From Yponomeuta sedellus (lineage: Eukaryota > Arthropoda > Insecta > Lepidoptera > Yponomeutidae): 64,000 bases of DNA. Made by a program: the position numbers and the translations under genes. How positions within the stretch are numbered: position 1 is the stretch's first letter; every line of letters starts with the position of its first letter. Shown here one piece after another: positions 16,141-52,884 of this stretch. Below the pieces are notes generated by a model. That model was not told the DNA's origin, did no database searches, and saw nothing but the letters and a program-made list of their open reading frames with translations. The stretch is from assembly GCA_934045075.1 (NCBI GenBank), contig OW203732.1, positions 4,443,501 through 4,507,500 on the forward strand. The letters are read 5' to 3'.

Positions 16141-16172
16141 ACAAAAAGTGTTGTTAGACCTAATAAAACAAA

Positions 16173-16541: not shown

Positions 16542-16614
16542 AAATAACCAAGCTATCTGATACAACTAGAAGAGGCTTTAGCACCTCCTGCTTCCCCTTG
16601 TATTCTTAAGACTG

Positions 16615-19243: not shown

Positions 19244-20036
19244 ATGTTATTAGTAATTTAAAGTTGCTTATATTTTAGTCTAATAATTTGAAATATTGAC
19301 GTAAATAAAAAATAATTGAGTTGAGAATTCAAAAATTGAGAACCATTAATACCGGCTCACCAACCAATAACTCGCGCACGGGTCACACACACCGCTGGAT
19401 ATCAACCGTTTGTACGTCTTCTTTCTGCTGGGGCATGGGTCTCTTCCTGCCTCGCAGGAAGGTTTGGCCGTACTCCACCAGGGGCTCCCCTGGTCCGGCT
19501 TGGTGAAGGATTGTAAGACAGTGGCGGGCCTCACTGTCAGAAGTTATATTTAGCTATTAAATGTTTGAAGTCCAAGGACAGTTTTGATAATTCTTTTTTG
19601 TGAAATATACCACCTAGCAGAGCACAGGCCTTGAAAGAGATTAGAAGAAGAAGAAACCATTTATTGCATCAACAGAAACACACATTTGTTAACCGCATTA
19701 CAATAAGAAATATCCAAACAGAATACAAATACGGACATAAAAAAACAAAAAAGAATAATAAATAAACTGTTATTTATTTAAAAACCTATTTAGAGGCTAA
19801 AAATTTCACCCATGCCGGGATTCGAACCCGCAACCTCTGGCTATCCGTACCAGCGCTCTACCAATTGAGCCAATGGGCGACTCACGGCATCAGTGAAATT
19901 TCGAACCTCTTTACAATATTCTCTGTATTACGTACAGGCAGCGACATCTGACTTAAGCAAATTGCATTACTTACAGCCCCAACTACCTACTTTGCAGTTA
20001 GGTTTTAACATCGGAACGATATCACTGTACCCACAT
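19244..20036 (+). repeat. 859-bp duplication, copy B
   Basis: A near-identical direct repeat of 18385-19177, including the F4 block and the minus-strand SINE-B. It differs by a few bases (for example near 19895 versus 19036). Either a recent segmental duplication or an assembly duplication. Confidence 0.9.
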
Positions 20037-20330
20037 GATTACACTATTTTTATTTTTAATGCACTAACCCGTGCAGTTATATCGTTCCGATGTTAAAACC
20101 TAACTGCAAAGTAGGTAGTCGGGGCTGTAAGTAATGCAATTTGCTTAAGTCAGATGTCGCTGCCTGTACGTAATACAGAGAATATTGTAAAGAGGTTCGA
20201 AATTAATTCACTGATGCCGTGAGTCGCCCATTGGCTCAATTGGTAGAGCGCTGGTACGGATAGCCAGAGGTTGCGGGTTCGAATCCCGGCATGGGTGAAA
20301 TTTTTAGCCTCTAAATAGGTTTTTAAATTT
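19785..20330. repeat. Head-to-head SINE-B palindrome
   Basis: A minus-strand SINE-B (about 19785-20020) and a plus-strand SINE-B (about 20085-20370) form inverted arms of roughly 240 bp. They are separated by a spacer of about 65 bp containing 'cccacatgattacac'. Arm identity is very high. Confidence 0.85.
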
Positions 20331-20370
20331 GTTCCTTAGCACGGGTTAGTGCATTAAAAATAAAAATAGT

Positions 20371-21039
20371 GTTATTTATTTATTTACTTAAAGCACACCA
20401 ACAGGTAACATACGAGTATTACATGATAGCCTACCTTACGTTCTGTTCTTGTATGTTAGCCAATTACGGGTGAGTACAGCATTACATAATATACCTATCT
20501 AATTTTTGCTACTACTGTTGACAGTACATGGGTAGATCTTGACGCTTTGCTAAAGCGTCAGACGGTATTGGGTATGTTATATACTAAAATTAATTGTAAC
20601 TATAACTAGATATAAATAACCTACTTTTAATGAATACGGGAAACCTTTTTATTTGTATGGGTTTAATTACAACGCGTGCCCACCGCGTACTGACAATTTC
20701 AAGCGGTATATGTACATCCTAAACACTCAGGTTCCTTACAATATTTTCCTTAAAAATAAATTAATAGTCCCTATGAAAAAATCTAGGAGAAAAGTCAATA
20801 TTGAACAGAGAAAAGACAAATGTTCTTAACTGTACATTGAAGGGCAATGTCTCAGTGACCCTTACGTCTGTAATAATATAATTGGTAATGACGAGCGAGC
20901 GTCGGAAATGACATTGTTTGACGACACAGGGTAATCGTTTATGAAGTGTAATGAATGAAGTGTGGTGAATGTCATAGAGCAGGACTGCCTGCTCAGAAAT
21001 TTAATAAACTGCCGGTACATAGGTAATTGTACTTCGATA
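20371..21039. other. Non-coding, F8 piece
   Basis: An F8-like piece ('gggtttaattacaacgcgtgcccaccgcg') lies at about 20660-20700. No gene. Confidence 0.4.
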
Positions 21040-25223: not shown

Positions 25224-25229
25224 ATGAGA
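25224..25229. repeat. Target-site duplication, left (ATGAGA)
   Basis: ATGAGA immediately precedes the left terminal repeat and is repeated immediately after the right one at 36939-36944. Six bases is the length made by Polinton integrases. Confidence 0.9.
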
Positions 25230-25355
25230 AGTAGGATGTTATTGGGCATTCTGGACCAGCTTCCATTCGTTTGAGCTCACGACGCACCGCGCCGGTTGGC
25301 GCGGCTTGTCGCTCTCTCAAACTCATTACAGCTATTCCAGAATACCCAATAACAT
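25230..25355 (+). repeat. Polinton left terminal inverted repeat, itself a hairpin
   Basis: This 126-bp repeat is inverted at 36813-36938 with about four mismatches by eye. The repeat is also an imperfect palindrome: 25237-25293 pairs with 25298-25354 around GGTT, at about 42 of 57 positions. It starts TGTTATTGGG and has a strong GC core (CCGCGCC GGTT GGCGCGG). Similarity continues weakly inward (GATTCT). Confidence 0.92.
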
Positions 25356-27780
25356 CGAGTGATTCTAATTTATAGTTTCAATAATTTTACGAGCAACCTA
25401 CACAGTTTATGATAAATTCCATCAATGAAAACGAATGACACTAGGAAGCTTGAGTGAATGCAACTCACCATCATCTTGGTGGAGATAGGTCCGCATAGTC
25501 ACTGAGTTGAATTAAATAAAGGATCCCCAAGCTCAACTGAATTGTATTTACCCACTAGCTATGTTTTGTGCAGTTTCGTAATATACTAGATAAAACAGCA
25601 CACATTATTTGCGGTATCGGTTAGGTTTCCTCATTAAGACAATGACATGAAATATTCCAAGTGATACTTGTATTTACCCAGTCATAGTTTTGTGACCAGA
25701 TTGGCTTCTCCCACTGAATGAGTTTAACACCACTGGTGTCTACTTTTCATAACAGTGACACAAAACTTTGCTTTTTCAACCCAGTTTGTTTTGTAGTCAG
25801 ATTGACGTCTCCCACATGAACAAGGTACAACACCACAAATTTTGTTATCAGATTGACTTCCCGTGATGGCCCTTCATACAATAACATAAAAGTACAATTT
25901 CAACTTAATCATATTTTGTGGTCAGATTGACGGCTCCCACTGTTAGAAAGATTCAGCACCACAAATTACTTTGTGATCAGATTGACTTCATGTGATGAAC
26001 CTTCTTGCGCAACAGTGACACAAAACATTTTCGTCTTAACTGTATTTTATGGTCAGATTGACGTCTCCCATTGTAAAAAAGGTGATTCCAACACAACAAA
26101 ATTTTGTGATCCTTTTCATGTGACACAAATACTGGGTGATTGGCAGAACCAGGAAATACTTGTATTTTAGGCATATTTTATGGTCGGCACAAAGAATACC
26201 TTACTTTTCCCACAAAAATGTTAGTGATCAGATTGAAGTCTCCTGTTTATCGTTCACTACGGAAAACACAAAACATTGCACAGTAGGAAAAATTTACTTC
26301 TACAGTTACTTGAATCCTTGGGTATACTTAAGTAAAATCGTGAATTAATGATAATATCACTGACACATAAAAGTATACTTTCATTAATGGAAATCTATTT
26401 CCTACTAACGTGTCACTTTAGTTAACGCGAATGCGAATATGATAGGTGGCTGGCAGGGATTGTCAACCTTTAGCTGTTGACGCAGGAGTTATAAATTTGA
26501 TACGAAGTATACACGGTGTAAGAAAAAATATGTTGTCAAAAAGTACAGTTTTATTTATAAAAGTTGGTTCCTTTGAACATTCCTTAAAGGTATTCCGGTA
26601 ATAAAGCATTTTCCATGTTATTATTTTTTTAAGACTTGATGTTAAAGTATTTTAAGAAATCATGATTTTGTAAATACGACCGACAGCATTTTGTCTTTTT
26701 TTAATTGAAACTTGAAGATATTATTCTCATCCCATTATACGTAACTGAACCTATGCAGATAGTTTTATATTTTTTCAACAGTTTTCTAACATCAGTTCTC
26801 GTTCATTTTCTATCTAAATTTATCTGTAACATACAGTAAAATAAATACAGTAAATTTTACATAACCCATAAATAAAGAATTTAGAGGGGTCATAATATTT
26901 TAATGTATCACCTACATAAGAGATAACCAAAGGTTGACTATACTAGCTATACTCTAGTCTAAGATCCACACGGAAAAAACTCGTTGCATCAAAATATTTA
27001 GCTGTAGGTATCATTAATACCTAATGTTTGACTTTCACATAATATTGTGGAGTCTACCAAATGCTTTATAAAGAATACCTAGATAAGTATTATTTATCCT
27101 GAAATACATTTATATAGTAATTTCATCGATATCATACGATGTTTTCTATGGATAAGCTAGAGGAATTAATTATAATTTCCTATTTAGCTCATCATCCGAT
27201 TTCTGGTAACTGGAAATAACAGTTTATTTTCTTCTGCTATAGTGAAATATTCACCCAATTCGAACATTATCTGATTAAGATCAAGAAAATCTAAAGTAAA
27301 TTGCAACATGTGTATCTAGGACTATTTACTCCTACCTAGGTATGAAACCTACGAATTTGCTACGTTAACGTTATTGGATCCGTTGCAAGCTTCTGATTGC
27401 GAAACATCTTACCTACAATAATCGATATATTGGTCACATTATGTTGCAATGGCAACCAGCCACATTAACTTGAGCTATTAAATAGTGCTGACATTATGAG
27501 AATAACATATAGGCTTGACCTTGCTACCGGTCAAGATGATTTGGTTAAGTACCTACTTTTGAAGGCAAAGCAAAAATTTTGGGTGTTCGATACTAAAAAG
27601 TAATATGTATTACTTTTATCAACAATCACCTATATTCATACACCTATAAATAAAGGCGATTTTCGCATTTACTTCATTACAGTACTTGTAATAAAAAAAC
27701 AACATACACATTTAGGATATAAACCTATAACACCCTGATTTATCTAAAATTCTCATCACTTCCGATAACGTGATAACGCT
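25356..27780. other. Polinton left non-coding arm
   Basis: No ORF above about 70 codons is credible here. In a canonical Polinton this length would hold part of a polymerase gene. The only structure seen is the iterated CAGATTGA array (25697-26236). The remainder is AT-rich and unstructured by eye. Confidence 0.6.
25680..26250 (+). repeat. Iterated CAGATTGA motif array in the Polinton
   Basis: Seven same-orientation motifs start at 25697 (CAGATTGG), 25798, 25849, 25923, 25978, 26054 and 26229 (all CAGATTGA). Two context types alternate: a long form around TTTTGTGGTCAGATTGACGT followed by CTCCCAC, and a short form around TTTGTGATCAGATTGACTTC followed by GTGATG. Together they make a degenerate repeat of about 125-131 bp. 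Degenerate copies lacking the core lie near 26104 and 26177. The array could be a replication-origin iteron set, a regulatory region for the rightward gene, or a decayed minisatellite. Confidence 0.75.
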
Positions 27781-27853
27781 GTTCAGTACAGTCTCCGTGT
27801 GGTGTAATTATCTACGACTTCCTCGCTACCAGTCACTCCATCGGTATCAAAAT
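27720..27853 (+). promoter_or_regulatory. Putative promoter and 5' leader of the rightward Polinton gene
   Basis: A TTCAGTACAGT initiator-like sequence (arthropod Inr TCAGT at 27783-27787) lies about 70 bases upstream of the first splice donor. No strong TATA box at the usual spacing. Inferred from position only. Confidence 0.35.
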
Positions 27854-29446
27854 GTTAGTAAGTATATTTATTTACATCCTAATTTTTTTTTTTTTTACGT
27901 GTTCCACTGACTAAACCGTATTAGTCCCTATATGAAAACTATGTCCCGAACTATGTCTAAAAAATATGTTCCAGTCACTACATTTATCTAGTATAGTAAT
28001 TACAATACGGTGTATAAATCGTTTAGGTTAAATGTATAAGACTGGTATAAAACTATGTTATTATTATTTCAGGTCTGACTCCGAGTTTGAATTCTCTGGT
28101 GTACCTATTGCTGTGCAGTCGAGTAAGAAGCAAAAGACTCCAACCAGCTCCAAACGCAAAGCATCGAGCTACGTTGAGGAGACAGTTAGGTAAGAATACA
28201 ATACATCTATAGTTTATTATAAATGATTGTACACTTTACACATCGTTTCAAATGACGATTCCCTCGATGTAATCAAGCTGTTGATGAAAATCTTGGAACA
28301 TTGAAAGAGATAACAACTGTTTATTTGTTTGTTTCATAACTAAAAGTTGTTTATTCGTCTTAATAATTCAAACCATAGGTTTGACCCTTAAACCTTATTT
28401 TCTATAGCCTAAAGCCGGGGCCGCTGCACCATGTTACGCGTGTTACAAAAAACGTAACACTTAAATATAATAAAAGTGGGACATGGTATAACACGTTAGG
28501 TACTTGTTATATAACGTTACGTTACGTAACACGTAAAGTGTTAATACCACTCCCCATTTTTGTTTTAATAACGTGTTACATTTTTTGTAACACGCGTAAC
28601 ATGGCGCAGCGGACCCGGCTTAACATTGATCGTTACGGTAAATGTTTACATCCAGGGAAAAGTTTACTGGAATAGAATTAGTCTCGTTATATTATTCGTT
28701 GTTACGTTGTCGCGTCATTTGACTCTAGCACACCGCTGAGTCATTGAATCGTTGATTACATTGCAGGCATGTACTCGTAAAGGTTAACATGCTGTCGACT
28801 GTTTACTTTGCATCTTACTAGTCGTGGGTTCGATACCCGCTTCGCGTAGTATTTTTGTTTTCCATGTAAGATATGCTTATTAAGAATCACTTGGGATATT
28901 TGCTTATTAAGAATGACATATATGGGATAGATCAAAAGTAGATATGTACCCTTCATATTAAACTATCATCCACTTCATACTCGTTCAATGTATGTGTATC
29001 TCCTATAGATAGCCTACCCAATCGGAATATAGGTATAAGTTTATGAAGGTACTTATGTTTTAAAATATATTGTTCACTTTTACAGGTCTGCAAGCACCTT
29101 AAAGAAAAAGACGGTGGGAGATCTTTTCGGGATTTTGCGAGACGCAGAGAAGGTCGCTAAAGCGACTCCCGAGCAGCACCAACTGGGGTCGAGTCTAGTG
29201 ACGCGGGTCGCCAATGGTCACGTTCGTCGGACAGCAACGACGGAAGGAGAATTCTATATAGAATTGAAGGTCTACAACACTACCGATGCTGCAAGTACCA
29301 ACGTTCAAGAGAGGTGGAAAAAAGCGTTGATGGTAATAAAATTGCAGACTGATACGGACACACCGCACTGGGACGTATTACAGAAATTTATTAAACAAGT
29401 TTATTCACTGTATGATAATAGTGAGGCGAGTTTTTTTAGATTTTAG
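27852..29446 (+). CDS. Spliced Polinton protein of unknown function (about 159 residues)
   Basis: This is the only rightward gene seen in the element. Its frame is interrupted by two introns with clean signals. Intron 1 runs 27854-28072 (donor GTTAGTAAGT, acceptor TTATTTCAG), so the start codon is built across the junction from AT at 27852-27853 and G at 28073. Intron 2 runs 28190-29085 (donor GTAAGAATA, acceptor ACTTTTACAG) and joins in phase. Exon 2 is Ser-, Lys- and Glu-rich, suggesting a nuclear, basic N-terminus. Exon 3 encodes a mixed helical domain (motifs TVGDLFGILRDAEKVAK and WKKALMVIKLQTDTDTPHWD). I recognise no family. In Polintons this arm usually holds replication genes, so a replication or regulatory role is a guess. 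The first-exon choice is uncertain. Intron 2 contains a nested MITE. Confidence 0.55.
28412..28621. mobile_element. MITE nested in intron 2 of the Polinton gene
   Basis: The left end AAGCCGGGGCCGCTGCACCA.. and right end ..GGCGCAGCGGACCCGGCTT are inverted, with about 48-bp arms that also share CATGTTACGCGTGTTACAAA. The element is about 210 bp. The palindromic middle is rich in GTAACGTTACGTTACGTAAC. Having landed in an intron, it may be tolerated. Confidence 0.8.
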
Positions 29447-29808
29447 GCGAGACTGATCCGACTGACCCTTACTACTACGCGCAAAATATTTTGAGTGGGT
29501 TCGATAGTGATGTCGAAGAAATACGAAACCCGGCTCCATCAGACGTGGGGAAGCGGAAAAGTAAGACTTCAAGGAAACGGGTTGCAAAGGACTCCACGTC
29601 TACATCATATGTGGTTAGCAAGGCGGCAAGAAGAGGAAATCGGTTGATAAAAATAGAAGTATTCGACTTAAATGAGTGTAAGGACACAAACAGTGAAAGT
29701 GCGGTGTTAAGTGCCCAATATGTTGTGATAGATCCTGTAGACGAAATAATGGACATGGTGGAAAACGTAGTTAAGAACATTTCTAAAAATATGTGCAATA
29801 GTTATTAA
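29447..29808 (+). CDS. Possible C-terminal extension of the rightward gene
   Basis: The open frame from just after TTTTAG at 29446 to 29808 encodes an acidic start (ETDPTDPYYYAQ), a basic patch (KRKSKTSRKRVAK) and a hydrophobic-acidic tail (MDMVENVVKNISKN). It has no good start codon of its own. It is one frame off the previous exon, but the 17-base stretch 29430-29446 begins GT and ends TTTTAG. Treating it as removed keeps the two frames in register (343 + 359 bases, divisible by 3). Such an intron is far shorter than known insect introns. Programmed frameshifting, a sequencing error, or an alternative upstream donor are other options. Confidence 0.4.
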
Positions 29809-29834
29809 TTTCGTTTTAAATTAAAAATTAATTA

Positions 29835-29875
29835 AATAAAACATGTTTTCTTTTTTAAATACATTTACATTTATT
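29835..29875. terminator. Back-to-back polyadenylation signals
   Basis: AATAAA on the plus strand (29835-29840) ends the rightward gene. Its complement TTTATT (29870-29875) ends the leftward gene block. The convergent units therefore end within about 40 bases of each other. Confidence 0.7.
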
Positions 29876-29916
29876 TCTTACTTTCAATAAAAAAGTTACA
29901 TAAATACTTGCTTATT

Positions 29917-30405
29917 CTAAATAAATTCTATAACATTATTTTCATAAAACCATTTCTTGACACATAGTACATTTTTCAACGCACATTGTTTGTGGTGAGA
30001 AAAACACGTAAAATTGCATACACTATATTTATCATGCAGGTATTTTATATTAGGACATTGATTTTCCTCGATATTAATAACACAACAATCACCACAAAGT
30101 TTATTTACCCACATGATTTTTTCTAAACCTTTTACAAAAATTTTCTTATTCCTCAATAAACTATAAATTAACCTATGAAATTCGCGGTAGTCAATAAAAC
30201 CTTCACGCCAATAAATTCCTCTATTCTTTTCCAACCAAACAACTTGCTTTTTTTCGCTATCTGATAAAGTAGAAAATGGATAAGGAGGTTTTACCAAGTA
30301 GACCATAGTAAATTCTTTAGTAGCGAGAGCAAACTCTTTAATAATAAAATTATTTTTATAATCTCTAAATCCTTGTAAATCTACAAAAATATGTTCAGAA
30401 TTCAT
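29917..30405 (-). CDS. Conserved Cys/His-rich protein, function unknown (162 aa)
   Basis: This is the last gene of the leftward block; its ATG overlaps the capsid gene stop as ATGA (30402-30405). The N-terminus has IFVDLQGFRDYKNNFIIKEF, a motif I recall from uncharacterised insect and Polinton proteins and which loosely resembles the first motif of DEDD exonucleases with one acidic residue replaced. The C-terminal third contains clustered Cys and His residues (CGDCC, then C-N-F-T-C-F-S-H-H-K-Q-C), which could bind zinc. No enzyme class can be assigned from the sequence alone. Possible roles are nucleic-acid binding or processing. It is intact. Confidence 0.75.
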   Translation of the reverse strand: MNSEHIFVDLQGFRDYKNNFIIKEFALATKEFTMVYLVKPPYPFSTLSDSEKKQVVWLEKNRGIYWREGFIDYREFHRLIYSLLRNKKIFVKGLEKIMWVNKLCGDCCVINIEENQCPNIKYLHDKYSVCNFTCFSHHKQCALKNVLCVKKWFYENNVIEFI

Positions 30406-31616
30406 GTTATTTTTTTAACGATGTTAGAAAGTGGTTTATATTCGATTACACAATCGTTTAGTATGAGGCAGTAAGCAGAAGTTTGATCTGGTATTTCTAA
30501 ATCACTCTCTATTTCTACTCTAACATCAATGGGACCTGTCTTCAGGGTCTCATTTTGCCTGCAGCAATCTATTACAAATAATGGTGCTTTATCTTTGAAA
30601 TCCTTCAGATTTAACAACGGCTCACACCGACGTCCATAGTAAGACTGTTGGAATCTAGCGTACTGCTCATATAATATCATATACCTTTCTTCAGTAAACT
30701 TAATATTGAGACTTTCATATGGAAAGTAAGTTGAATTTAAAAAAACCTTGACATCACGTACATAACAATGATCAAAGTGAGACATGTCTTTCATACCTAA
30801 ACTTTTCCGATTAGTTTGTAAACCAATAATCACATAACGTGGTTTCTCTAATTGAGATGTGGTTTTTATAGACCAAGTATGTTTTGTAGTCTGTGGTAAA
30901 AGAGGGTATTCATAGAGATCCCAATTCCTAAATGCTAAACTGATAGGTCTATCTTTCTCCAAACATCTCAGCAAGTTAACTCTTTCACGATCAGATACTT
31001 TTATATGCGGTACTCTCCATACAATTTTGTTAATGGTTATGTCATCTAACACTTCATTAGTGGTTAATTTAATAGAATTAAGGTTTGTATTACTACGCAA
31101 AAGAACCAGCTCATGTTTACAGTTCATTATTATTTTATTATAATCTTCAGCGAAACCTAAAACTTTATTCAATGGGATACAGGCGGAAAAATTACCAGTA
31201 GTATTTTTTATTCCATCAATGTCCCACCCCCATAGCCGTGACATTTTTGATTCATTTTCATTCATCGAGAGCAATGATTTAATAGTAGTTGTGATCCCAG
31301 CATTTTTTATCCTATCAATTTCTACGCCATTTAGTTCATATCGAATGTCTTGGAAAAGAAAAAGCGCTGCATTATTCACCAACTCAATATTACTCACTCT
31401 CTCTTTTTTATCGCCATTTGGACGGTGCACTGTGATAGAACCTTCGATGTATAGTGTACTCTGTGACGGTAAGACGTATAAGTCTTGTTGATTGATGGGA
31501 ATGCGTATTTCATCGTTTTTGTTAAAACTATTAATGTAGGGCTTATACGAATGGATTTGGTAGCTTTCAATGCTGTTGTCGTAGGCGAAAGAATCCAAGA
31601 TATTTAAGATATTCAT
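30402..31616 (-). CDS. Double-jelly-roll-like major capsid protein (404 aa)
   Basis: This is the longest ORF of the element, in the capsid position between penton-like and tail genes. The N-terminal text ..YKPYINSFNKNDEIRIPIN, followed by LPSQSTLYIEGSITV and DIRYELNGVEIDRI, matches what I know of the double-jelly-roll-like domain proteins common in arthropod and cnidarian Polinton-type elements. The rest is beta-rich with no catalytic motif. In the virion it would form the pseudo-hexameric capsomers. At 404 residues it is short compared with the 500-600 of many Polinton capsid proteins, but typical of this insect group. Its ATG overlaps the 48-codon ORF stop and its stop overlaps the next ATG, both as ATGA. 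A structure prediction would confirm two stacked jelly-rolls. Confidence 0.8.
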   Translation of the reverse strand: MNILNILDSFAYDNSIESYQIHSYKPYINSFNKNDEIRIPINQQDLYVLPSQSTLYIEGSITVHRPNGDKKERVSNIELVNNAALFLFQDIRYELNGVEIDRIKNAGITTTIKSLLSMNENESKMSRLWGWDIDGIKNTTGNFSACIPLNKVLGFAEDYNKIIMNCKHELVLLRSNTNLNSIKLTTNEVLDDITINKIVWRVPHIKVSDRERVNLLRCLEKDRPISLAFRNWDLYEYPLLPQTTKHTWSIKTTSQLEKPRYVIIGLQTNRKSLGMKDMSHFDHCYVRDVKVFLNSTYFPYESLNIKFTEERYMILYEQYARFQQSYYGRRCEPLLNLKDFKDKAPLFVIDCCRQNETLKTGPIDVRVEIESDLEIPDQTSAYCLILNDCVIEYKPLSNIVKKIT

Positions 31617-31759
31617 TTTATGACTTTTAAGTATCTGAGAAATTGTTTATTTTCCTTAGTCAGTTTTTTCTTTTTAGCAGGTGGTTTCTGTTGCGGTGGA
31701 TGTGTTGTACTGAGATCTTTGGTTTCGGGTACCAATGTTTTATTTATGAAATCTATCAT
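31613..31759 (-). CDS. Small lysine-rich protein (48 aa), between penton and capsid genes
   Basis: This ORF is too short for routine gene calling, but it exactly fills the gap between the penton-like and capsid genes. It overlaps both as ATGA: its ATG is at 31759-31757 over the penton stop, and its TGA at 31615-31613 over the capsid start. The product has a proline/glutamine/lysine core (HPPQQKPPAKKKKLTKEN) followed by a hydrophobic-basic tail. It could be a capsid cement or DNA-packing peptide, comparable in size and charge to adenovirus core peptides; that is inference only. The double ATGA overlap is the main evidence that it is translated. Confidence 0.65.
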   Translation of the reverse strand: MIDFINKTLVPETKDLSTTHPPQQKPPAKKKKLTKENKQFLRYLKVIK

Positions 31760-32427
31760 TTTCGTCTTAGGTGTAAATATAACTGTAGTTCTTCTTGTCG
31801 TAGATTTATAAGGTTGTTATTTGCATCCAAAATCCTTATATTAATCTCGCTAACTGTATTTTGATTTACTGGGAAATATATCAAATTTTTTGGGATTTCT
31901 ATAATCCTGTACCCTGGCGGTACATTAGGTGCAAATTCGTAAATTATATGGCTAGGCTTCCCATTTATGTACGATCCGCTCACGATATCACATTCTATTC
32001 GAACGATGGTTGTTGGTAGAATGTTTACAGGGAAGAGAGACTCATGTAATATATTAGCTTTAAGAGTCTGATTTCCAAAACCCAATATCCTTCCGATTGA
32101 ACCGGATTTCTCAAAATGAATATCTTTTGAACAAATTATTTTTGTGCTCAAAGTGTTATTGTTACATATCAAATTAAACGTACAGTCTACTAAATTTGTT
32201 TTTAAAAAGTCATTTATATCTAATAGCTCGTATGATCCTTCGGGTATTTCAATCATTTCGTTGTCGCCATAATGAAATTTGTTGTTGTAGCATTCTATGT
32301 TAGGAATCGAATTAAACGTCGAAAAAAAGATCAGCCCACATTCATATTCACCATCAAGCTGCAGAGCCGGCGAATAAAATGTTGACAAAGCTGGTTTACA
32401 ACCGGTTATTGATAGCGTGAATGACAT
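31756..32427 (-). CDS. Penton-like minor capsid protein, single jelly-roll (223 aa)
   Basis: The protein is beta-rich. It carries the motifs GRILGF (central) and PPGYRIIEIPKNLIYFPVN, and ends in a segment like INIRILDANNNLINLRQEEL, which I recognise from minor capsid (penton) proteins of Polinton/adintovirus-like elements in invertebrates. It would form the pentameric capsid vertices. It lies between protease and capsid genes as expected. The stop overlaps the start of the 48-codon ORF by four bases. It is complete, with a start codon at 32427 and no upstream in-frame Met. Confidence 0.8.
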   Translation of the reverse strand: MSFTLSITGCKPALSTFYSPALQLDGEYECGLIFFSTFNSIPNIECYNNKFHYGDNEMIEIPEGSYELLDINDFLKTNLVDCTFNLICNNNTLSTKIICSKDIHFEKSGSIGRILGFGNQTLKANILHESLFPVNILPTTIVRIECDIVSGSYINGKPSHIIYEFAPNVPPGYRIIEIPKNLIYFPVNQNTVSEINIRILDANNNLINLRQEELQLYLHLRRK

Positions 32428-32458
32428 CGTAATAATGGTGAGAATAGTTTATGATTTC

Positions 32459-32854
32459 TTAATATAAATGTTTCAACCAGAATGTTTTTAAAAATTTTAT
32501 GCATAAATGACCGCAATTATAGGTGTTGTTTTGTTGATAGTTCATATAACTATAATAAACGTTAGTGTTTTTTGTTAAGTACTTGATTAATTCTACAGGT
32601 GGTTTTAAACCATAACTATCAAAGTACACGCTGTAATTATTTATCTTAATGTAGGCTACCCAGTGAGTTCCCGGATTTATTGAATTATCTAGATTCAGGA
32701 TAGCGCACTCGATGTTATTTGATTTGCTTGGTAAAGTGTCTCTCATATAGACACCTCGAAAGTATGGGATGTCCCGAGTATAATATATTAAATCTATATT
32801 ACTCAGTGCTCGTCTGGGTAACCTTTTAACTAGTTTTTTGAAGAATGTACGCAC
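32459..32854 (-). CDS. Adenain-type cysteine protease (131 aa)
   Basis: This is a small Ulp1/adenovirus-type protease fold. The catalytic set is visible in order: His64 in GTHWVAY, Asp79 in YFDSYG, Gln107 in NYQQNNT and Cys114 in YNCGHLC. It would process capsid and core proteins during maturation. At 131 residues it is compact compared with adenain (about 200), keeping only the core. It starts 25 bases inside the end of the PLA2 gene in another frame. All four catalytic residues are present, so activity is plausible. Confidence 0.9.
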   Translation of the reverse strand: MRTFFKKLVKRLPRRALSNIDLIYYTRDIPYFRGVYMRDTLPSKSNNIECAILNLDNSINPGTHWVAYIKINNYSVYFDSYGLKPPVELIKYLTKNTNVYYSYMNYQQNNTYNCGHLCIKFLKTFWLKHLY

Positions 32855-33558
32855 AATCCCTTACCTGTCTTGTATGGTTTGATGTATAAACCTTTGCCTA
32901 AGGAGATCGATTCCATCATTTTATTGTGACGCACGGATTCAGAAAGATTTTTTTGGGCTGACTTGTAATCATTAACTGCTTTTGCTATTCCACCAATACC
33001 TCCAGCTAAAGAACCCAATGCTGATAGACCAGCAAAAATAGGAATGAGTGGAAGTATTCCTCCAGTTTTAGGGATGGGAATAATTCTTGGCAGCTTCATA
33101 TTATTTTTCTTATGAAATATTTTTTTTGCTGCTAAGTATGCAAACTGAATAGCATCTTGAATATTTTTAGGTTTCTTTTTTTTCAGATGCGATTTTAATT
33201 TAGCCATAGAAGTTTTGAATGATTTAATTCCAGCACCCGATTTAATTTTTGCTTTCATTACTTTATTCACCAACCATGATGCAACTTTTTCACCTCTGCT
33301 AGCATCTTCTGATTTTAATCGTTGCTTTGCCATCTTTCTTAGCTCTAAGTCAGCCTTATGCCGATCTTCTAAACTTGAATACTTTGAATAAGCTATGTCG
33401 TGCAGCATACAAGCGCTGTCCAAAGGGTTTATGCCTTTATCGCCTCTTTGCAAACGTTCTTGTAATCGAGTACCTGGACCGCAGTAGTTGTAGCCTGGTA
33501 AGTGTAACTCTATTGGTAAATTATTGATTAAAGTATTGAGAAGTCCTTTCCCTTTCAT
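32830..33558 (-). CDS. Phospholipase A2 domain fused to a pX-like membrane-active protein (242 aa)
   Basis: The N-terminal domain is a parvovirus VP1-type PLA2: calcium loop YNYCGPGT (residues 23-30), followed by GINPLDSACMLHDIAY with the catalytic His53-Asp54. A long basic segment follows (Lys-rich, about 100-155). Then comes a glycine/alanine hydrophobic helix (GGILPLIPIFAGLSALGSLA), much like adenovirus pX/pVI membrane-active peptides. GKGL motifs near both ends could be maturation sites for the neighbouring protease (inference). In adintovirus-type elements such proteins are thought to breach endosomal membranes during entry. Intact; its 3' end overlaps the protease start. Confidence 0.88.
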   Translation of the reverse strand: MKGKGLLNTLINNLPIELHLPGYNYCGPGTRLQERLQRGDKGINPLDSACMLHDIAYSKYSSLEDRHKADLELRKMAKQRLKSEDASRGEKVASWLVNKVMKAKIKSGAGIKSFKTSMAKLKSHLKKKKPKNIQDAIQFAYLAAKKIFHKKNNMKLPRIIPIPKTGGILPLIPIFAGLSALGSLAGGIGGIAKAVNDYKSAQKNLSESVRHNKMMESISLGKGLYIKPYKTGKGLCVHSSKN

Positions 33559-33607
33559 AACTAACGATGTAATGAAAAATAAGTTAACTAATCTGTAGTA
33601 ATATACT

Positions 33608-34540
33608 TCAATGCTTTATTATAGCACTTTTATTAATCCAACTATTTTCCTCTTGACCTAAGCCGAGCCATTTAACAAGATATTTGTTTCCCTTTTTTTT
33701 AATTACCTTCTCAACTAAATAAATATTGGGACAGCTAGTTTTTTGCAGTTCGTGTTCGTAAAAACAACCTTTTATTGGTATACAATGTTGATCTCGTATG
33801 TAATATGTTGTGGGTATAGATTTTATTACTTTTACAACAGTGAATAATTCGGTAGACCAGTTTGGTGTATATCCTTTTTGAAAATCTCCTTTGTGCTTGC
33901 TGATACGGACAAAGTCTCCAACACGAAATTTAATTTTCTTTGCAGGTAAGGAAGGTTGTGATTTGTTTATATTACATGCAACGAGTGATTCATTTAACTT
34001 GTTTATTTCAGACGGCATATGTTTTGTAGTGCGATGCATAGTATTATTATAGCTCTTAACTATATCACATAAAGGTTCTCCAATCCACTTATAATTTCCA
34101 AACAAGCTAAAATGTTTAAACAACTTGCTCTTCAAAGTTCTTATTAATCTTTCTACTATAGACGCTTTTTTTGTTGAATAAGTTGAATAATGATTTATTT
34201 TCCATCGGTTCGTAAGCTTCTGAAAAACGTCATTGTGAAATTCGGTACCCTTGTCGGTTTGTAAATTAGCAGGTGATCGGCCTTCTTGTAAAACCTTATC
34301 AAACGCTAGAGACACCTCAGTTTTTGTTTTATTCTTTAATGGAGCGATCCATGCGTATTTAGAAAAAGCATCGATGACTACTAAAATAAATTTGAATCCT
34401 TTGTTAACCTTCTGATAGTTTTGCATATCAATCAAATCGGCTTGCCATAAATCATCAATCCCTTTTAAAATAACAGAACGACGTGGGAAATTTCTTCTAG
34501 CTGCTTTATGGATTTCATTTACAACAGATTGTTTGCTCAT
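33608..34540 (-). CDS. Retrovirus-type integrase with chromodomain (310 aa)
   Basis: The DDE core is complete: Asp35 (QADLID), Asp96 (LQTDKGTEF) and Glu130 (KASIVERLIRTLK), with the spacing usual for Polinton integrases. The C-terminus carries an SH3-like region (VGDFVRISKHKGDF) and a chromodomain (VEKVIKKKGNKYLVKWLGLG, about residues 272-310), which may bias insertion to certain chromatin. It would insert the element with a 6-bp duplication, matching the ATGAGA seen outside. The start codon overlaps the stop of the 120-codon gene as ATGA. Confidence 0.95.
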   Translation of the reverse strand: MSKQSVVNEIHKAARRNFPRRSVILKGIDDLWQADLIDMQNYQKVNKGFKFILVVIDAFSKYAWIAPLKNKTKTEVSLAFDKVLQEGRSPANLQTDKGTEFHNDVFQKLTNRWKINHYSTYSTKKASIVERLIRTLKSKLFKHFSLFGNYKWIGEPLCDIVKSYNNTMHRTTKHMPSEINKLNESLVACNINKSQPSLPAKKIKFRVGDFVRISKHKGDFQKGYTPNWSTELFTVVKVIKSIPTTYYIRDQHCIPIKGCFYEHELQKTSCPNIYLVEKVIKKKGNKYLVKWLGLGQEENSWINKSAIIKH

Positions 34541-34899
34541 GCTGGTTTCGATGAGTCTCTGAGTGCTACTATATGATCTTTAATAATATTACTCGCTTCT
34601 ACCTTTGAACACTTCTCATCTAACTGTTTCTGTAGCAGTTGTATTTGAGTTTTTATACTTTTAAGTTCATTAATGAAATCTTGTTTTTTACAATATAATT
34701 TATTGTTTTTTTCTACATACTCCTTGCTAACAGCTTCATCTGCTGCTACAGCTAACGGTAATCCTCTCAATATACATTGTTTTAAGTCGTAAACTCCTGA
34801 CTCATTTTTACTTAGCCCTGTGTTTATAGGAACCAAATTTAATGGATCTGACACACGCAGTCTTTTATGAACATGATGTCCAAATTTATCTATATTCAT
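34537..34899 (-). CDS. Small coiled-coil protein, possible fibre-like (120 aa)
   Basis: No enzyme motif. The middle has RGLPLAVAADEAVSKEYVEKN, which resembles the repeated N-terminal motif of phage tail-fibre proteins (..DAVNK.YVD..). It is followed by a lysine/glutamine/leucine heptad stretch (about residues 65-105), probably a coiled coil. A vertex or fibre-like attachment role is therefore conceivable; I hold this weakly. It overlaps the integrase start by four bases. Confidence 0.6.
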   Translation of the reverse strand: MNIDKFGHHVHKRLRVSDPLNLVPINTGLSKNESGVYDLKQCILRGLPLAVAADEAVSKEYVEKNNKLYCKKQDFINELKSIKTQIQLLQKQLDEKCSKVEASNIIKDHIVALRDSSKPA

Positions 34900-34967
34900 C
34901 TTGTAAATAGTGTGAAGGTTAGAGTAGAAATAAAATAAAATATAGATTACATAAGTATTTATTCATT

Positions 34968-35912
34968 TTATATCACACCACGTTTTTTCAGTTCTGTTAA
35001 AACTGATACAATTTCATCATCTAAGCCAGTATTACCGGCATCTTTCGAAGCTATTAATAATTTCAATGTTTCAACTAATTCGTTTGGATCATTCCAAAAA
35101 ATGTAATCTACTTTGTTATCAACTTTTTTAAGCAATGATAAACCCTTTCCTTTGGAAACATTGGCGGAACATAATAAGGGTTTTACAATTTGTAAATACT
35201 TAAATCCTCTGTTGCTATTGATTGGTTGATTGGGATCATATTTACGTCGATGAGCGTTTGTGCTTATTAGTATAAATTTATAATTCCTTTTATCATCTTC
35301 AGTGATAATGTTTAGATCAGGATTTTTTTTGTAAAGTAATTCACTGAGTCCATTAGTTTTGACATACGAATGACCTGCTATTTCAAATGCATCATTAGTT
35401 ATGGAGAGCGGTGCTGATCCTATCATAGGTTTTCCATTTTCCAATCTAATTCCATAAGGTACATCTTTGAATACTTCTGATGATAAAGACCATGACGATA
35501 AAGACTTTGCATTTGGTGTTGAAGCACCATCCGAATTTGTTTCAAAAAATATGTCACTCATGTTATTTCTAAGACTTTGATTCAGTTCAGAGTCACTTAT
35601 GTTATCATCGCTGTTACTAGCATTCGATACCTCTTGGAGTGATTCCCTTGAAGAGCTAATTTCAGAAAATTTTCGTTTCTTCGTAGGTGTAGACTGTCGT
35701 GCTAAATGTTCAAGCGAATCAACATCTTCATTACTTAACTGTTCTTGATACGGGGTTCTCGTTAGCTGTTTAAGTGGATCTGTTACTGGTTTGAACATAG
35801 TTTCTAATGCCAACTCAGAATCCATTTTAGTATTTTTCATGTTTTGAACCTTCTTTTTAACAGCCTCAGCAGACTTAATTATTTGTTGTTTAATTGATTT
35901 TTCATCACACAT
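34968..35912 (-). CDS. DUF8207-type Polinton protein (314 aa)
   Basis: The C-terminal half matches my memory of the DUF8207 family of arthropod and cnidarian Polinton-type elements. The text YGIRLENGKPMIGSAPLSI, FEIAGHSYVKTNGLSELLY, ISTNAHRRKYDPNQPINSN and FWNDPNELVETLKLLIASKDAGN are the recurring blocks. The N-terminal half is acidic/Ser-rich and coiled (residues 1-140), probably disordered. Function is unknown; in these elements the gene always sits near ATPase and integrase, so a virion or packaging role is possible. An AATAAA signal lies just past the stop (34958-34963). Confidence 0.8.
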   Translation of the reverse strand: MCDEKSIKQQIIKSAEAVKKKVQNMKNTKMDSELALETMFKPVTDPLKQLTRTPYQEQLSNEDVDSLEHLARQSTPTKKRKFSEISSSRESLQEVSNASNSDDNISDSELNQSLRNNMSDIFFETNSDGASTPNAKSLSSWSLSSEVFKDVPYGIRLENGKPMIGSAPLSITNDAFEIAGHSYVKTNGLSELLYKKNPDLNIITEDDKRNYKFILISTNAHRRKYDPNQPINSNRGFKYLQIVKPLLCSANVSKGKGLSLLKKVDNKVDYIFWNDPNELVETLKLLIASKDAGNTGLDDEIVSVLTELKKRGVI

Positions 35913-35993
35913 TTTTTCTTATTTTACAACTACTCGCATATAAAGAAGATAAGAAAGTGGCTTCTGATTTAAAAAAAACGGCATTTATGTATC

Positions 35994-36683
35994 TCACTCG
36001 TCGAAAGTAATAAAGGTGTCGAATTTCATTCTGTAGCATCCGTTATTTCTTTGACAGTCTTTATTAATCACTAAATAGCTAAATGTATCTTTCCAAACTT
36101 GTGAACAAAGTTCGCGAAATTGATGCCAAGGCATATCAGTGTTCACATGTTCATCATAAATATGACGTAAGTTAATATCATCCTGTTTGAATATGATGAG
36201 TAGATTTGCATTGTCGCGAACCAGTTGTTTTGGGACTTTGCTATAAGTTTGGTTCAAATAAAAACAGTCTATATTTTTATGTCTACCCATGGCAAAGTAA
36301 TCACGAATGTTATTTTGATTTTCACAGGCAACATCGTCGAAAATAATGACAGAATTTTGAGACGCTAAGCTTGGATTTAAGACTTCTTTGTTATCGCGAT
36401 ATTTATAATAACGTATTCCTGGAACGAGATTCATTACCTTCTCTAAAAATATGTATTTTGGTTGATACAACGTTTTCGAATAAACGTACACGTTACGGAA
36501 ATGTAAACCATTAGGATGTAAAAGTAACCCAAGGACTAAGTTTGTTTTTCCGCAGTTAGACGGTCCGCAAACTATACAACGGATGGTGTTTGGTAAAAGC
36601 TTTCCGTGACGATATGTATTTTTTTCAGATCCTACATCAATATTCTCAAGATTTAGTGATGTAGGTTGTTTAACAAATTTCAT
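35994..36683 (-). CDS. FtsK/HerA-type packaging ATPase (A32-like, 229 aa)
   Basis: Walker A is GPSNCGKT (residues 40-47) and Walker B is IIFDD (113-117). A sensor-like FYLNQTYSKVPKQLVRDNANL follows around 155-175. This is the layout of poxvirus A32-like ATPases that pump DNA into capsids. It is the first gene of the leftward block, beginning about 255 bases from the right element end, with an Inr-like sequence shortly upstream. Complete. Confidence 0.93.
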   Translation of the reverse strand: MKFVKQPTSLNLENIDVGSEKNTYRHGKLLPNTIRCIVCGPSNCGKTNLVLGLLLHPNGLHFRNVYVYSKTLYQPKYIFLEKVMNLVPGIRYYKYRDNKEVLNPSLASQNSVIIFDDVACENQNNIRDYFAMGRHKNIDCFYLNQTYSKVPKQLVRDNANLLIIFKQDDINLRHIYDEHVNTDMPWHQFRELCSQVWKDTFSYLVINKDCQRNNGCYRMKFDTFITFDE

Positions 36684-36812
36684 TTTTGGAGAAATATGTT
36701 ACCAGTGATGTCCTCATTACTGAAATGCGATCATCACGATTAAACTTCAGTATTTATCTGTGTTACTAACATCATTTCATTTCCTGCCGCAAGTAAAATT
36801 CAGAATCAATCA
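36684..36812 (-). promoter_or_regulatory. Putative promoter of the leftward gene block
   Basis: Between the right terminal repeat and the ATPase start, the minus strand has TTCAGTAATG (complement at about 36715-36724), an arthropod initiator-like site about 35-40 bases before the start codon. AT-rich. Position-based inference. Confidence 0.4.
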
Positions 36813-36938
36813 ATATTATTGGGTATTCTGGAACAGATGTAATGAGTTTGAGTGAACGACAAGCCGCGCCAACCGGCGCGGTGCGTCGTGAGCTCAAACG
36901 AATGGAAGCTGGTCCAGAATGCCCAATAACATCCTACT
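36813..36938 (-). repeat. Polinton right terminal inverted repeat, itself a hairpin
   Basis: Reverse complement of the left terminal repeat with only a few substitutions near the inner side (for example GTTCACTC for GCTCTCTC). It ends CATCCTACT, directly before the ATGAGA duplication. Confidence 0.92.
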
Positions 36939-36944
36939 ATGAGA
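36939..36944. repeat. Target-site duplication, right (ATGAGA)
   Basis: Matches the left copy at 25224-25229. Confidence 0.9.
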
Positions 36945-37990: not shown

Positions 37991-39124
37991 TTATCTTATC
38001 TTATACGTCAGCGCTTGAAATTGCCCATCCGCCGTGGGCACGTGTGGCAATCAACCCGATACTCTCTCTCTGAGAGAAGGCCTGTGCCATATAAAATAAA
38101 TATCTTGCTCACGAAAAACATACTTATTAATACAGTTGCTCAAAAAGTGGCGTATTACAGGGACGTATAGAGTGCGGGATGGGGGCTATTACACACGCGT
38201 GCTTTTTTTTACCTTTGCCGCACTCGTGCCTTTTCTTTCCCAACTGTCAAAATAATTCAGTCTAGTCAAACTCTATTAAAAACAAAAACCAACCATGAAG
38301 TTTTTACTAAAAAAAATCATAGAAGTTTTTCTGAGCTACTAATTTGTTTCAATATCAGATTTAATGATTTGATTGAATGAGTTAAGTTTGGTTTCATTTA
38401 ATCTCATTAAATTTCATTTTCATTTCATATCAAAAAAAAAATCTATAGAAGACTTGGCTGTATGGGCATAGTTCCCTTTGCCTACTAGAATGGGTGAAGA
38501 AAAAAAATCTCTGCTTATATTTTTTACGGTTGGCGCCATTTTACAAATATTTTTTCTTTATTAAATTGCTTATTTTTTCGCAACTGTATTAAAAATAGTC
38601 GTTCAGTACACATGCGGAACCGTCATTGCAACTTGTTCCGACTGTCAACACTCGCCTTCGGCTGCGCCTCGGCTCGGGTAGACATTTGTCGGAACTCTTT
38701 GCAATGACAGCCTTTCCGCACTTGTAATGAAATATACTATTTCTATGCAGAACTATCAGGCTGCAGGACACATCCCCGTTTTGTGAAGAAGGCAAAGTTG
38801 AAAAACACCAATTGATATTCAACCTCAATACATAATACATACTTATCGGGAAACACATCCCAGCGAGAGGAACTGTCACATTTATCGTTCCTGGGTAACT
38901 CGGACCCAGTTTTTACCAACTTAGGGCTACTTGTCAAACCATGGCAGATCCACTAACATGATCAAATTATAGCCCGGTATTGGAACAAAACAGACTAGTC
39001 CTACTTGAAGTCCATACTGTCTTGATATGACGATGTTTGATGCGATTGTGGAGATTTTTGTGTCATTACTCATTATACATCATCATGTGCATTATACCCT
39101 CAGACTACATTTATCAAAACTTTA
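37991..39124. other. Non-coding, nothing recognised
   Basis: An F8-like piece ('gcttgaaattgcccatccgccgtgggcacgtg') lies at about 38012-38046. Otherwise no supported gene; ORFs at 38589-38937 have no motif. Confidence 0.4.
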
Positions 39125-39132
39125 CTTATTTA

Positions 39133-39133
<1 letters not shown>

Positions 39134-39163
<30 letters not shown>

Positions 39164-39543
39164 CATACATACATACATACATACATACATACATACATAC
39201 ATACATACATACATACATACATACATACATACATACATACATACATACATACATACATACATACATACATACATACATACATACATACATACATACATAC
39301 ATACATACATACATACATACATACATACATACATACATACATACATACATACATACATACATACATACATACATACATACATACATACATACATACATAC
39401 ATACATACATACATACATACATACATACATACATACATACATACATACATACATACATACATACATACATACATACATACATACATACATACATACATAC
39501 ATACATACATACATACATACATACATACATACATACATACATA
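39134..39543 (+). repeat. (ATAC)n microsatellite, about 102 units
   Basis: A pure ATAC (minus strand TATG) array of about 410 bp adjoining a minus-strand LINE tail at 39544. YIHT and MYVC ORFs are array artefacts. Confidence 0.97.
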
Positions 39544-39826
39544 ACGTCACGCCTGTATCCCAGAGAGATAGGCAGAGACCAGGGACTGCCACTTGCCACG
39601 ATCCTCACAGATCACCTTTGCTTCATCAACGTTCATAATATTAAGTCGTTGCATGCACGGACGCCGGTTCCGGGTACTTTTTATATTTCCCTTTGCTAAT
39701 ACATCCCCTATCTGGTCGATGTATGTCCGCCTGGGACGACCCACAAACCCTCACATTCGCAATATATATTTGTTTCGTCAATCTTTCTTCCTTCATCCTC
39801 TCTACATGTCCAAACCAATGCAACAT
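39544..39826 (-). pseudogene. LINE C-terminal tail (TATG-tail family), the longest copy
   Basis: The minus strand encodes LHWFGHVERMKEERLTKQIY in one frame, then, after a frame change, GRPRRTYIDQIGDVLAKGNI, DEAKVICEDRGKWQSLVSAY and the element end. This is the RT tail block of an insect LINE. The stop is followed at once by the microsatellite. Confidence 0.8.
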
Positions 39827-51886: not shown

Positions 51887-51913
51887 TAGTTAGTTTAGCT
51901 ATAAACTAACTAA

Positions 51914-52873: not shown

Positions 52874-52884
52874 ATGACTGACAA
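52874..52884. repeat. LINE target-site duplication, 5' side
   Basis: TGACTGACAAT, matching 48706-48716. Confidence 0.9.

What the first reader, a model, noticed from the sequence alone, without database searches (positions are those of the whole stretch)
25230..36938. Intact, TSD-flanked Polinton/adintovirus-like element that lacks DNA polymerase B
The sequence shows matching 126-bp terminal repeats with AG/CT ends, a 6-bp ATGAGA duplication on both flanks, and intact packaging ATPase, integrase, protease, penton-like, capsid and PLA2 genes. Known Polintons and adintoviruses are defined in part by a protein-primed polymerase B of about 1,000 residues. Here no frame can hold it and there is no trace of one. 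At 11.7 kb it is also short. Either this is a lineage that replicates another way, a satellite using a helper, or a derivative that lost polymerase after integration.
Basis: partly seen in the sequence, partly recalled or inferred. Interest (0 to 1): 0.92.

Follow-up and report, generated by a model that had tools for sequence, protein, structure and literature searches.

The report
Moth virus-transposon missing its polymerase
A recently inserted virus-like element in what is probably a moth genome keeps its shell, packaging and integration genes but has no DNA polymerase of its own; a gene that may be related to one of small insect parvoviruses lies where the polymerase should be, and its ends can fold into hairpins, so if it still multiplies it probably borrows a polymerase.

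Summary
25230-36938 is a TSD-flanked (ATGAGA) element of the lepidopteran Maverick/adintovirus kind: nine open minus-strand ORFs, eight in the published Spodoptera frugiperda Maverick order plus one extra, and no polymerase B. Its capsid protein is 70% identical to Spodoptera moth adintovirus 1 hexon.

Two things were missed. (1) The only arm with room for PolB (25378-29916) holds a spliced plus-strand gene (about 159 aa predicted) of a lepidopteran family with apparently conserved introns. Its composition differs from the virus genes (GC3 0.49 against 0.28), and its best matches among modelled viral proteins are densovirus NS2. (2) Each terminal repeat contains a 122-nt imperfect palindrome that folds into a hairpin (0 of 200 shuffles as stable), as in densoviruses; bidnavirus ITRs are reported not to.

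Most likely this is a non-autonomous element whose PolB arm was replaced, before a recent integration, by a segment with a host or densovirus-like gene, and whose DNA is copied by a polymerase supplied in trans. A densovirus-style hairpin route is possible but unproven: no NS1 was found.

The parts
25224..25229 (.). Left copy of the 6-bp target-site duplication ATGAGA
   Evidence: read directly
25230..25377 (+). Left terminal inverted repeat; nt 6-127 (122 nt) form an imperfect palindrome (hairpin, 4-nt loop)
   Evidence: (MFE -39.3/-43.0 kcal/mol on the two strands, 0 of 200 shuffles as stable)
25769..26255 (.). Subterminal repeats of about 50-60 nt, mostly at 125-131 nt spacing (core GATCAGATTGA / GGTCAGATTGA)
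   Evidence: families D2 and D3; sequence
27836..27853 (+). Predicted end of exon 1 of the NS2-like gene (5' UTR plus first two bases of a split start codon); inferred, no RNA
   Evidence: splice-site reading; N-terminus by comparison with P0121
28073..28189 (+). Exon 2 of the NS2-like gene (N-terminal acidic/basic tail)
   Evidence: 69% identical over 32 aa to Plutella P0121, E 9e-14 in a single comparison
28413..28620 (.). 208-bp palindromic MITE flanked by TAA, inside intron 2
   Evidence: I2; borders read
29086..29446 (+). Exon 3 of the NS2-like gene (conserved domain) with stop
   Evidence: 71% to P0121; 13 further family members
29440..29808 (+). Open frame of 122 codons downstream (ORF B), unknown; GC3 0.43
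   Evidence: (8.5 bits, E 0.21 to the NS2-like profile, not significant)
29810..29915 (.). AT-rich (14% GC) convergence point; AATAAA on + at 29835 and 29886 (and 29920), on - at 29870
29917..30405 (-). 162-aa ORF, position of Sf Maverick ORF8
30402..31616 (-). [quoted passage not shown]
   Evidence: PF21738 2e-112; 70% to Spodoptera moth adintovirus 1 hexon, 81-83% to the closest eight clusters
31756..32427 (-). 223-aa ORF, position of Sf Maverick ORF6 (148 aa there); possible minor capsid/penton protein, not shown
   Evidence: no Pfam family above cut-off; position only
32459..32854 (-). Adenain/Ulp1-type cysteine protease, His-Asp-Cys motifs present; start codon unclear
   Evidence: Peptidase_C5 0.002, below cut-off; motifs; frame from GTG
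32830..33558 (-). Parvovirus-type phospholipase A2 protein (CAP of Sf Mavericks)
   Evidence: PF08398 2e-15; HD motif
33608..34540 (-). RVE integrase with chromodomain, 310 aa
   Evidence: PF00665 3e-10, PF00385 1e-6; D-D-E motifs
34537..34899 (-). 120-aa ORF, not among the nine ORFs listed for Sf Mavericks
34968..35912 (-). 314-aa ORF, position of Sf Maverick ORF2
35994..36683 (-). A32/FtsK-type packaging ATPase, 229 aa
   Evidence: PF04665 1.5e-6; Walker motifs
36791..36938 (-). Right terminal inverted repeat, palindromic
   Evidence: (MFE -34.3/-39.6 kcal/mol)
36939..36944 (.). Right copy of the target-site duplication ATGAGA

Best explanation
It is a young provirus-like insertion of a lepidopteran Maverick/Polinton (adintovirus kin) in which the PolB arm was replaced, before this integration, by about 4.5 kb carrying a spliced NS2-like gene. 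The element is non-autonomous. It supplies its own capsid, protease, packaging ATPase and integrase, and its hairpin-forming 148-nt TIRs are the cis signals. Its DNA is copied by a polymerase supplied in trans, most simply PolB from a related intact element or virus recognising the same ends. Shown: open genes, TSD, identical outer TIRs, absence of an intact PolB, presence and family of the plus-strand gene, hairpin potential. Inferred: mobilisation in PolB-less form, the helper, and the role of the NS2-like gene (host- or densovirus-derived cargo that may help replication or expression).
For: Gene order matches Sf Maverick 1/2, which both carry POLB, and gene sizes are close (here/there, aa: ATP 229/228, ORF2 314/305, INT 310/310, CAP 242/258, PRO 131/133, ORF7 404/404, ORF8 162/158; the exception is ORF6, 223/148). 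The capsid is 70% identical to a named adintovirus. No PolB found. The plus-strand gene lies in the only arm with room for PolB, has introns, and has GC3 0.49 (77 of 157 codons, exons 2 and 3) against 0.28 (608 of 2135) in the nine minus-strand ORFs, Fisher p = 2e-7; no 157-codon stretch of those ORFs exceeds 0.40. Its relatives are annotated lepidopteran proteins, one or two clusters per named species. A perfect TSD, 82 identical terminal bases and nine open frames argue for recent integration of the whole unit with both ends.
Against: Only one copy has been seen; no helper, and no second copy of the same form, could be looked for because the assembly did not answer (25 calls). Replacement after integration would give the same sequence. 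The MITE in intron 2 shows that this arm has had time to take an insertion somewhere. Some clusters of the NS2-like family stand for 8-9 contigs, so the family may itself be mobile or element-borne rather than a host gene. ORF6 differs in size and the protease start is unclear. If the TIR palindrome is peculiar to this element, a PolB helper with ordinary ends might not recognise it.
Confidence: 0.5

Rival explanations
1. Post-integration loss: an ordinary PolB-bearing Maverick inserted, and later a local rearrangement removed PolB and brought in the NS2-like gene. The element is a dying copy with no lifestyle of its own.
For: Introns, higher GC3 and a MITE in the arm look like chromosomal DNA; both described Sf Mavericks carry PolB.
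Against: Everything else looks young: nine ORFs open, TSD perfect, outer 82 nt of the TIRs identical. A deletion and an insertion in the same arm without touching the TIR or ORF8 are needed.
Confidence: 0.27
2. Adintovirus-densovirus hybrid lineage: the element has exchanged protein-primed replication for parvovirus-style hairpin-primed replication, keeping a densovirus-like NS2 and hairpin ends, with NS1 (HUH nickase/helicase) supplied by a coinfecting densovirus or an endogenous copy. It would be the mirror image of bidnaviruses, which are parvovirus-derived but use Polinton PolB.
For: Both TIRs fold as hairpins, z -7.2 to -9.9, 0 of 200 shuffles as stable in each of four foldings. Bidnavirus ITRs are said not to form the hairpins characteristic of parvoviruses (PMC4061559 passages). 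An ambisense densovirus has I-shaped hairpin ITRs of similar size and convergent NS (rightward) and virion (leftward) units (PMC12297876 passages), as here. The exon-3 model's best BFVD match is H. armigera densovirus NS2 (E 1.1e-4), with 16 of the 18 best rows from parvo-, denso- or parvo-like viruses; the separate Plutella model also ranks H. armigera densovirus NS2 first (E 9.6e-3, next 0.18).
Against: No NS1, HUH or superfamily 3 helicase family in any frame (the scan is not sensitive to weak remnants). Models are weak (pLDDT 56.5 and 41.5) with low TM-scores (0.36 or less for the best rows). Only 1 of 152 matches and 0 of 322 are below E 0.001. The gene has introns and belongs to a family annotated in lepidopteran chromosomes. 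Convergent layout is no special sign: in Sf Maverick 2 the POLB also faces the eight small ORFs. Identity between the two ends stops at nt 82, inside the palindrome, instead of covering the hairpin. It is not known whether PolB-bearing moth Mavericks also have palindromic TIRs.
Confidence: 0.1
3. Chance composite: a solo TIR or fold-back element lies 4.5 kb from a truncated Maverick with a host gene between them.
For: The plus-strand gene looks like chromosomal DNA; the TIR is itself a palindrome.
Against: The 6-bp flanking sequence matches exactly on both outer sides (1 in 4096 for random DNA, simple arithmetic), with TIRs in the right orientation and 82 identical bases.
Confidence: 0.05

Closest known systems
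Sf Maverick 1 and 2 (Spodoptera frugiperda; KY042018/KY042019) and Spodoptera moth adintovirus 1
   Same: Same order ATP-ORF2-INT-CAP(PLA2)-PRO-ORF6-ORF7(hexon)-ORF8 and, ORF6 apart, close gene sizes; hexon 70% identical
   Different: They carry a 1162-aa POLB, in Maverick 2 after the small ORFs on the opposite strand; here it is absent, that arm holds a spliced NS2-like gene, ORF6 is longer (223 against 148 aa) and there is an extra 120-aa ORF. The paper's main text holds none of the words 'inverted', 'TIR' or 'ITR', so termini could not be compared
Tlr1-type polinton-like elements of Tetrahymena (PMC11071308 passages)
   Same: RVE integrase retained while a normal pPolB is not encoded
   Different: Tlr1 encodes a large multidomain protein with a superfamily 1 helicase instead; no such gene, and no frame long enough for one, is seen here, and the host is an insect
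Bidnaviridae (e.g. Bombyx mori bidensovirus)
   Same: Chimaera of parvovirus and Polinton parts in Lepidoptera (PMC4061559 passages)
   Different: They have PolB, a superfamily 3 helicase and a parvovirus-type capsid, and their ITRs do not form hairpins; this element lacks the first two, has a double jelly-roll capsid and has hairpin-forming ends
Ambisense densoviruses (Densovirinae)
   Same: Hairpin-forming ITRs, convergent rightward NS and leftward virion units, possible NS2-like gene, PLA2
   Different: No NS1; adenovirus-type capsid genes and an integrase instead of a parvovirus VP; 11.7 kb against 5.1 kb for the one described
Adenovirus-class genomes lacking PolB and Integrase ('meldviruses') in the survey of Buck et al. 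2024 (PMC11071296, section 16)
   Same: Virion genes of this class without a recognisable PolB
   Different: Those lack integrase as well; this one keeps integrase, TIRs and a TSD

Membership tests
Polinton/Maverick | Terminal inverted repeats with a short (about 6 bp) target-site duplication (size recalled) | tested here: met
   148-nt TIR, ATGAGA on both sides
Polinton/Maverick | Retrovirus-like RVE integrase | tested here: met
   PF00665 3e-10, PF00385 1e-6, D-D-E motifs
Polinton/Maverick | A32/FtsK packaging ATPase | tested here: met
   PF04665 1.5e-6
Polinton/Maverick | Ulp1/adenain cysteine protease | tested here: inconclusive
   PF00770 0.002, below the curated cut-off; catalytic motifs and position agree
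[quoted passage not shown]
   PF21738 2e-112
[quoted passage not shown]
   223-aa ORF without a Pfam match above cut-off; not modelled
Polinton/Maverick | Protein-primed family B polymerase | tested here: not met
   no frame of sufficient length, no Pfam match in the six frames
Adintovirus (definition of PMC11071296, section 16) | Hexon recognisable by BLASTP | tested here: met
   70% to Spodoptera moth adintovirus 1 hexon over the whole length
Adintovirus (definition of PMC11071296, section 16) | rve integrase with C-terminal chromodomain | tested here: met
Adintovirus (definition of PMC11071296, section 16) | PolB with N-terminal OTU-like domain | tested here: not met
   so it is filed as adintovirus-derived, not as an adintovirus in the strict sense
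Parvovirus-type (rolling-hairpin) replicon | Terminal palindromes that fold into hairpins | tested here: met
Parvovirus-type (rolling-hairpin) replicon | NS1 with HUH nickase and superfamily 3 helicase | tested here: not met
   no frame long enough in the left arm and no such Pfam family in the six frames
Parvovirus-type (rolling-hairpin) replicon | NS2 | tested here: inconclusive
   Foldseek E 1.1e-4 with a low-confidence model; no densovirus sequence could be compared directly
Parvovirus-type (rolling-hairpin) replicon | Packaged single-stranded DNA with hairpin ends | not testable with these tools
   needs virions or episomal DNA
Bidnaviridae | PolB plus superfamily 3 helicase plus parvovirus-type capsid | tested here: not met
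Polinton-like virus of Tlr1 type | Large protein with superfamily 1 helicase in place of pPolB | tested here: not met
   no such Pfam family in the six frames, no frame above 135 aa in the left arm

The most novel reading that the evidence does not exclude
A lineage of moth Polintons has given up protein-primed PolB and become a densovirus-like replicon: hairpin telomeres, a rightward NS2-type gene and leftward adenovirus-type virion and integrase genes, replicated by a rolling-hairpin mechanism with NS1 borrowed from a densovirus or an endogenous copy. It would be a mirror image of bidnaviruses and an integrating satellite in an animal.
Probability: 0.1. Interest if true: 0.93.

Novelty: new variant of a known kind. 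Interest (0 to 1): 0.67.

Why it matters
Polintons are described as self-synthesising because they carry their own polymerase. A young copy with capsid and integrase genes open but without a polymerase, and with a compositionally foreign gene in its place, would show either that these viruses have integrating satellites that carry host or parvovirus genes between genomes, or that the replication module can be swapped for a hairpin-based one. Both can be tested by comparing termini and left arms across moth genomes. It also points to an apparently unnamed lepidopteran gene family that may be kin to densovirus NS2.

Tried and rejected
Relatives in IMG/VR: capsid single and alignment, integrase, ATPase, NS2-like alignment and a TIR pattern gave none. 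GTDB genomes with the capsid alignment gave none. These collections hold metagenomic viruses and prokaryotes, so the absence means little.

The first homology search for exon 3 found one protein of 5 candidates; the tool's length window had shut out longer relatives, and the wider profile search found 14 of 5383 candidates, so 'unique to Plutella' was dropped. A first exon-2 range was in the wrong frame and was corrected; its alignment (A3) was not used further.

Seven paper searches on this point did not show, in the listings I saw, a Polinton with palindromic TIRs or a PolB-less moth Maverick: polinton/lack/PolB/insect/integrase, polinton/terminal inverted repeat/palindrom, maverick/without PolB/Lepidoptera/non-autonomous/integrase, polinton/hairpin/insect/inverted terminal repeat, polinton/Lepidoptera/PolB/endogenous from 2019, polinton/densovirus/NS2/rolling-hairpin/adintovirus, maverick/polinton/terminal inverted repeat/hairpin. 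I saw titles, starts of abstracts and chosen passages of six papers, so this is not proof of absence. Starrett et al. 2021 is not held and is known to me only by recall and through PMC11071296.

Changed on rechecking: layout was at first counted for the densovirus-type reading; Sf Maverick 2 has the same convergent layout, so its odds went from 0.12 to 0.10.
Full report
What is there. The host is probably a moth or butterfly: the named relatives among the listed hits of the capsid and of the plus-strand gene are lepidopteran; the species is not known to me. The element runs from 25230 to 36938. Its two ends read AGTAGGATG...CATCCTACT and are flanked on both sides by ATGAGA. The repeat finder gives inverted arms of 148 nt at 93%. 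The outer 82 nt are identical and all 11 differences within the 148 fall in nt 83-148 (p = 8e-5).

Gene content. The right 7 kb carries nine open ORFs on the minus strand; from the right end: ATPase (229 aa), 314-aa ORF, 120-aa ORF, integrase with chromodomain (310), PLA2 protein (242), protease (131, listed from a GTG, so its start is unclear), 223-aa ORF, double jelly-roll capsid (404) and a 162-aa ORF. Key catalytic motifs are present. The capsid protein has 2155 relatives at E<=0.001 among 3448 candidates; the 120 best were listed. The closest eight (81-83%) come from unnamed assemblies; named ones in the list include Loxostege, Ostrinia, Helicoverpa, Chrysodeixis, Parnassius and Spodoptera moth adintovirus 1 (70%). 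PMC5803895 (section 11, part 1 of 2; passages) describes Sf Maverick 1 and 2 with eight small ORFs in one order plus a POLB of 1162 aa, on the same strand in Maverick 1 and following on the opposite strand in Maverick 2. Eight of the nine ORFs here follow that order with close sizes, except ORF6 (223 against 148 aa); the 120-aa ORF is extra.

No polymerase. Between the left TIR and 29916 no stop-to-stop frame exceeds 135 codons. Stop-masked translation of all six frames of the arm matches no Pfam family at E<=1. The same treatment of the rest of the element recovers integrase/chromo, capsid and PLA2 (and one RGCC match at E 0.8), and no polymerase, Rep or helicase. It missed the ATPase and protease, so it is not sensitive to weak fragments.

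What lies in its place. The ATPase gene ends close to the right TIR, so the left arm is the only space for PolB. It holds a plus-strand gene with canonical splice signals: exon 2 at 28073-28189 and exon 3 at 29086-29446, and probably a start codon split by an intron after 27853. Predicted protein: about 159 aa, inferred without RNA. Exon 3 is 71% identical to a Plutella xylostella protein and exon 2 is 69% identical to its N-terminus over 32 aa. A profile search found 14 proteins among 5383 candidates: eight from named species (Plutella 2, Choristoneura 2, Leguminivora, Ostrinia, Maniola, Aricia one each) and six from unnamed assemblies. Four of them begin at what look like the same exon borders (P0122, P0123, P0125, P0130), so the intron positions look conserved. 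GC3 of exons 2 and 3 is 77 of 157 codons against 608 of 2135 in the nine minus-strand ORFs (p = 2e-7). So the gene has another compositional history than the virus genes beside it, and probably arrived as genomic DNA with introns. Whether the family is a host gene or is itself carried by mobile elements is open: some clusters stand for 8-9 contigs.

What the gene is. AlphaFold2 with 14 sequences gave a weak model (pLDDT 56.5). Against predicted viral proteins its best match is NS2 of Helicoverpa armigera densovirus (E 1.1e-4, probability 1.00, 28% identity over 127 columns, TM 0.36). Of the 18 best rows, 16 are proteins of parvo-, denso- or parvo-like viruses, 12 of them named NS2; only 1 of 152 matches is below E 0.001. 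The poorer, separate model of the Plutella protein also puts H. armigera densovirus NS2 first (E 9.6e-3; next 0.18; 0 of 322 below 0.001). Solved structures give nothing, nor does Pfam. I take kinship to NS2 as likely but not proven. Whether densoviruses took it from moths or moths from densoviruses is open.

The ends. Each TIR contains a 122-nt imperfect palindrome, 44 (left) and 43 (right) of 59 pairs, folding as a hairpin at -34 to -43 kcal/mol with 0 of 200 shuffles as stable in each of four foldings. PMC4061559 (passages) says bidnavirus ITRs do not form the hairpins characteristic of parvoviruses. PMC12297876 (passages) describes I-shaped hairpin ITRs with 107-nt hairpin-forming repeats and convergent NS and virion units in an ambisense densovirus. 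The layout here (rightward NS2-like gene, leftward virion genes, poly(A) signals of both strands in a 106-bp, 14% GC gap) is similar, but Sf Maverick 2 is laid out convergently too. Against a hairpin mechanism: no NS1, and end-to-end identity stops inside the palindrome. I could not learn whether PolB-bearing moth Mavericks have such ends; the main text on Sf Mavericks does not mention inverted repeats.

How it most likely works. Integrase, capsid, protease and packaging genes are open and the insertion looks young, so the unit probably moved as it is. Without a polymerase it needs one in trans, most simply PolB from a relative with matching ends (about 0.5). Loss after insertion is the main rival (0.27), a densovirus-type hybrid the boldest (0.10). 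The matching TSD makes a chance composite unlikely (0.05).

Limits. The host's own assembly was never reachable (25 calls), so copies, helper and host locus are untested. No RNA data. PMC11071296 was read in abstract, passages and section 16: it reports adenovirus-class virion genes in genomes lacking both PolB and integrase. PMC11071308 (passages) reports polinton-like viruses that mostly lack both, and the Tlr1 element of Tetrahymena with an RVE integrase but a helicase protein in place of pPolB. So absence of PolB has precedent; absence with integrase kept and no replacement replicase, in an insect, is what is unusual here. PMC8363768 (passages) describes Drosophila-associated adintoviruses with PolB.

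Noticed in passing
28413-28620: 208-bp palindromic MITE flanked by TAA with termini AGCCGGG...CCCGGCT, PIF/Harbinger-like by its 3-bp duplication (label recalled), inside intron 2 of the NS2-like gene.
   Followed up: partly
48992-53005: Non-LTR retrotransposon (Jockey/R1-type by recall) on the minus strand: 965-codon frame with endonuclease and reverse transcriptase domains and an upstream frame with PRE_C2HC.
   Followed up: partly
18384-20030: Two tandem copies of about 790 bp at 99.2% identity, followed by an inverted relative at about 20015-20375.
   Followed up: no
54720-55567: Three copies of a 308-bp tandem unit at 98-99% identity, related to repeats at 18.9-20.4 kb.
   Followed up: no
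16130-16550 and 39120-39600: Long simple-repeat tracts open in all six frames (frames reading (TNKQ)n/(LFVC)n and (TYIH)n/(YVCM)n).
   Followed up: no
29440-29808: A 122-codon plus-strand frame with intermediate GC3 (0.43) and no Pfam match above cut-off; it may be a further exon or gene of the replaced arm.
   Followed up: partly
25769-26255: Subterminal repeats with a GATCAGATTGA-like core, mostly at about 130-nt spacing, found near the left end; possible protein-binding array.
   Followed up: no
P0121-P0134: A lepidopteran protein family (full-length members about 150-230 aa, MSDSE N-terminus, basic tail, C-terminal domain) without a Pfam name and with apparent kinship to densovirus NS2.
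   Followed up: partly
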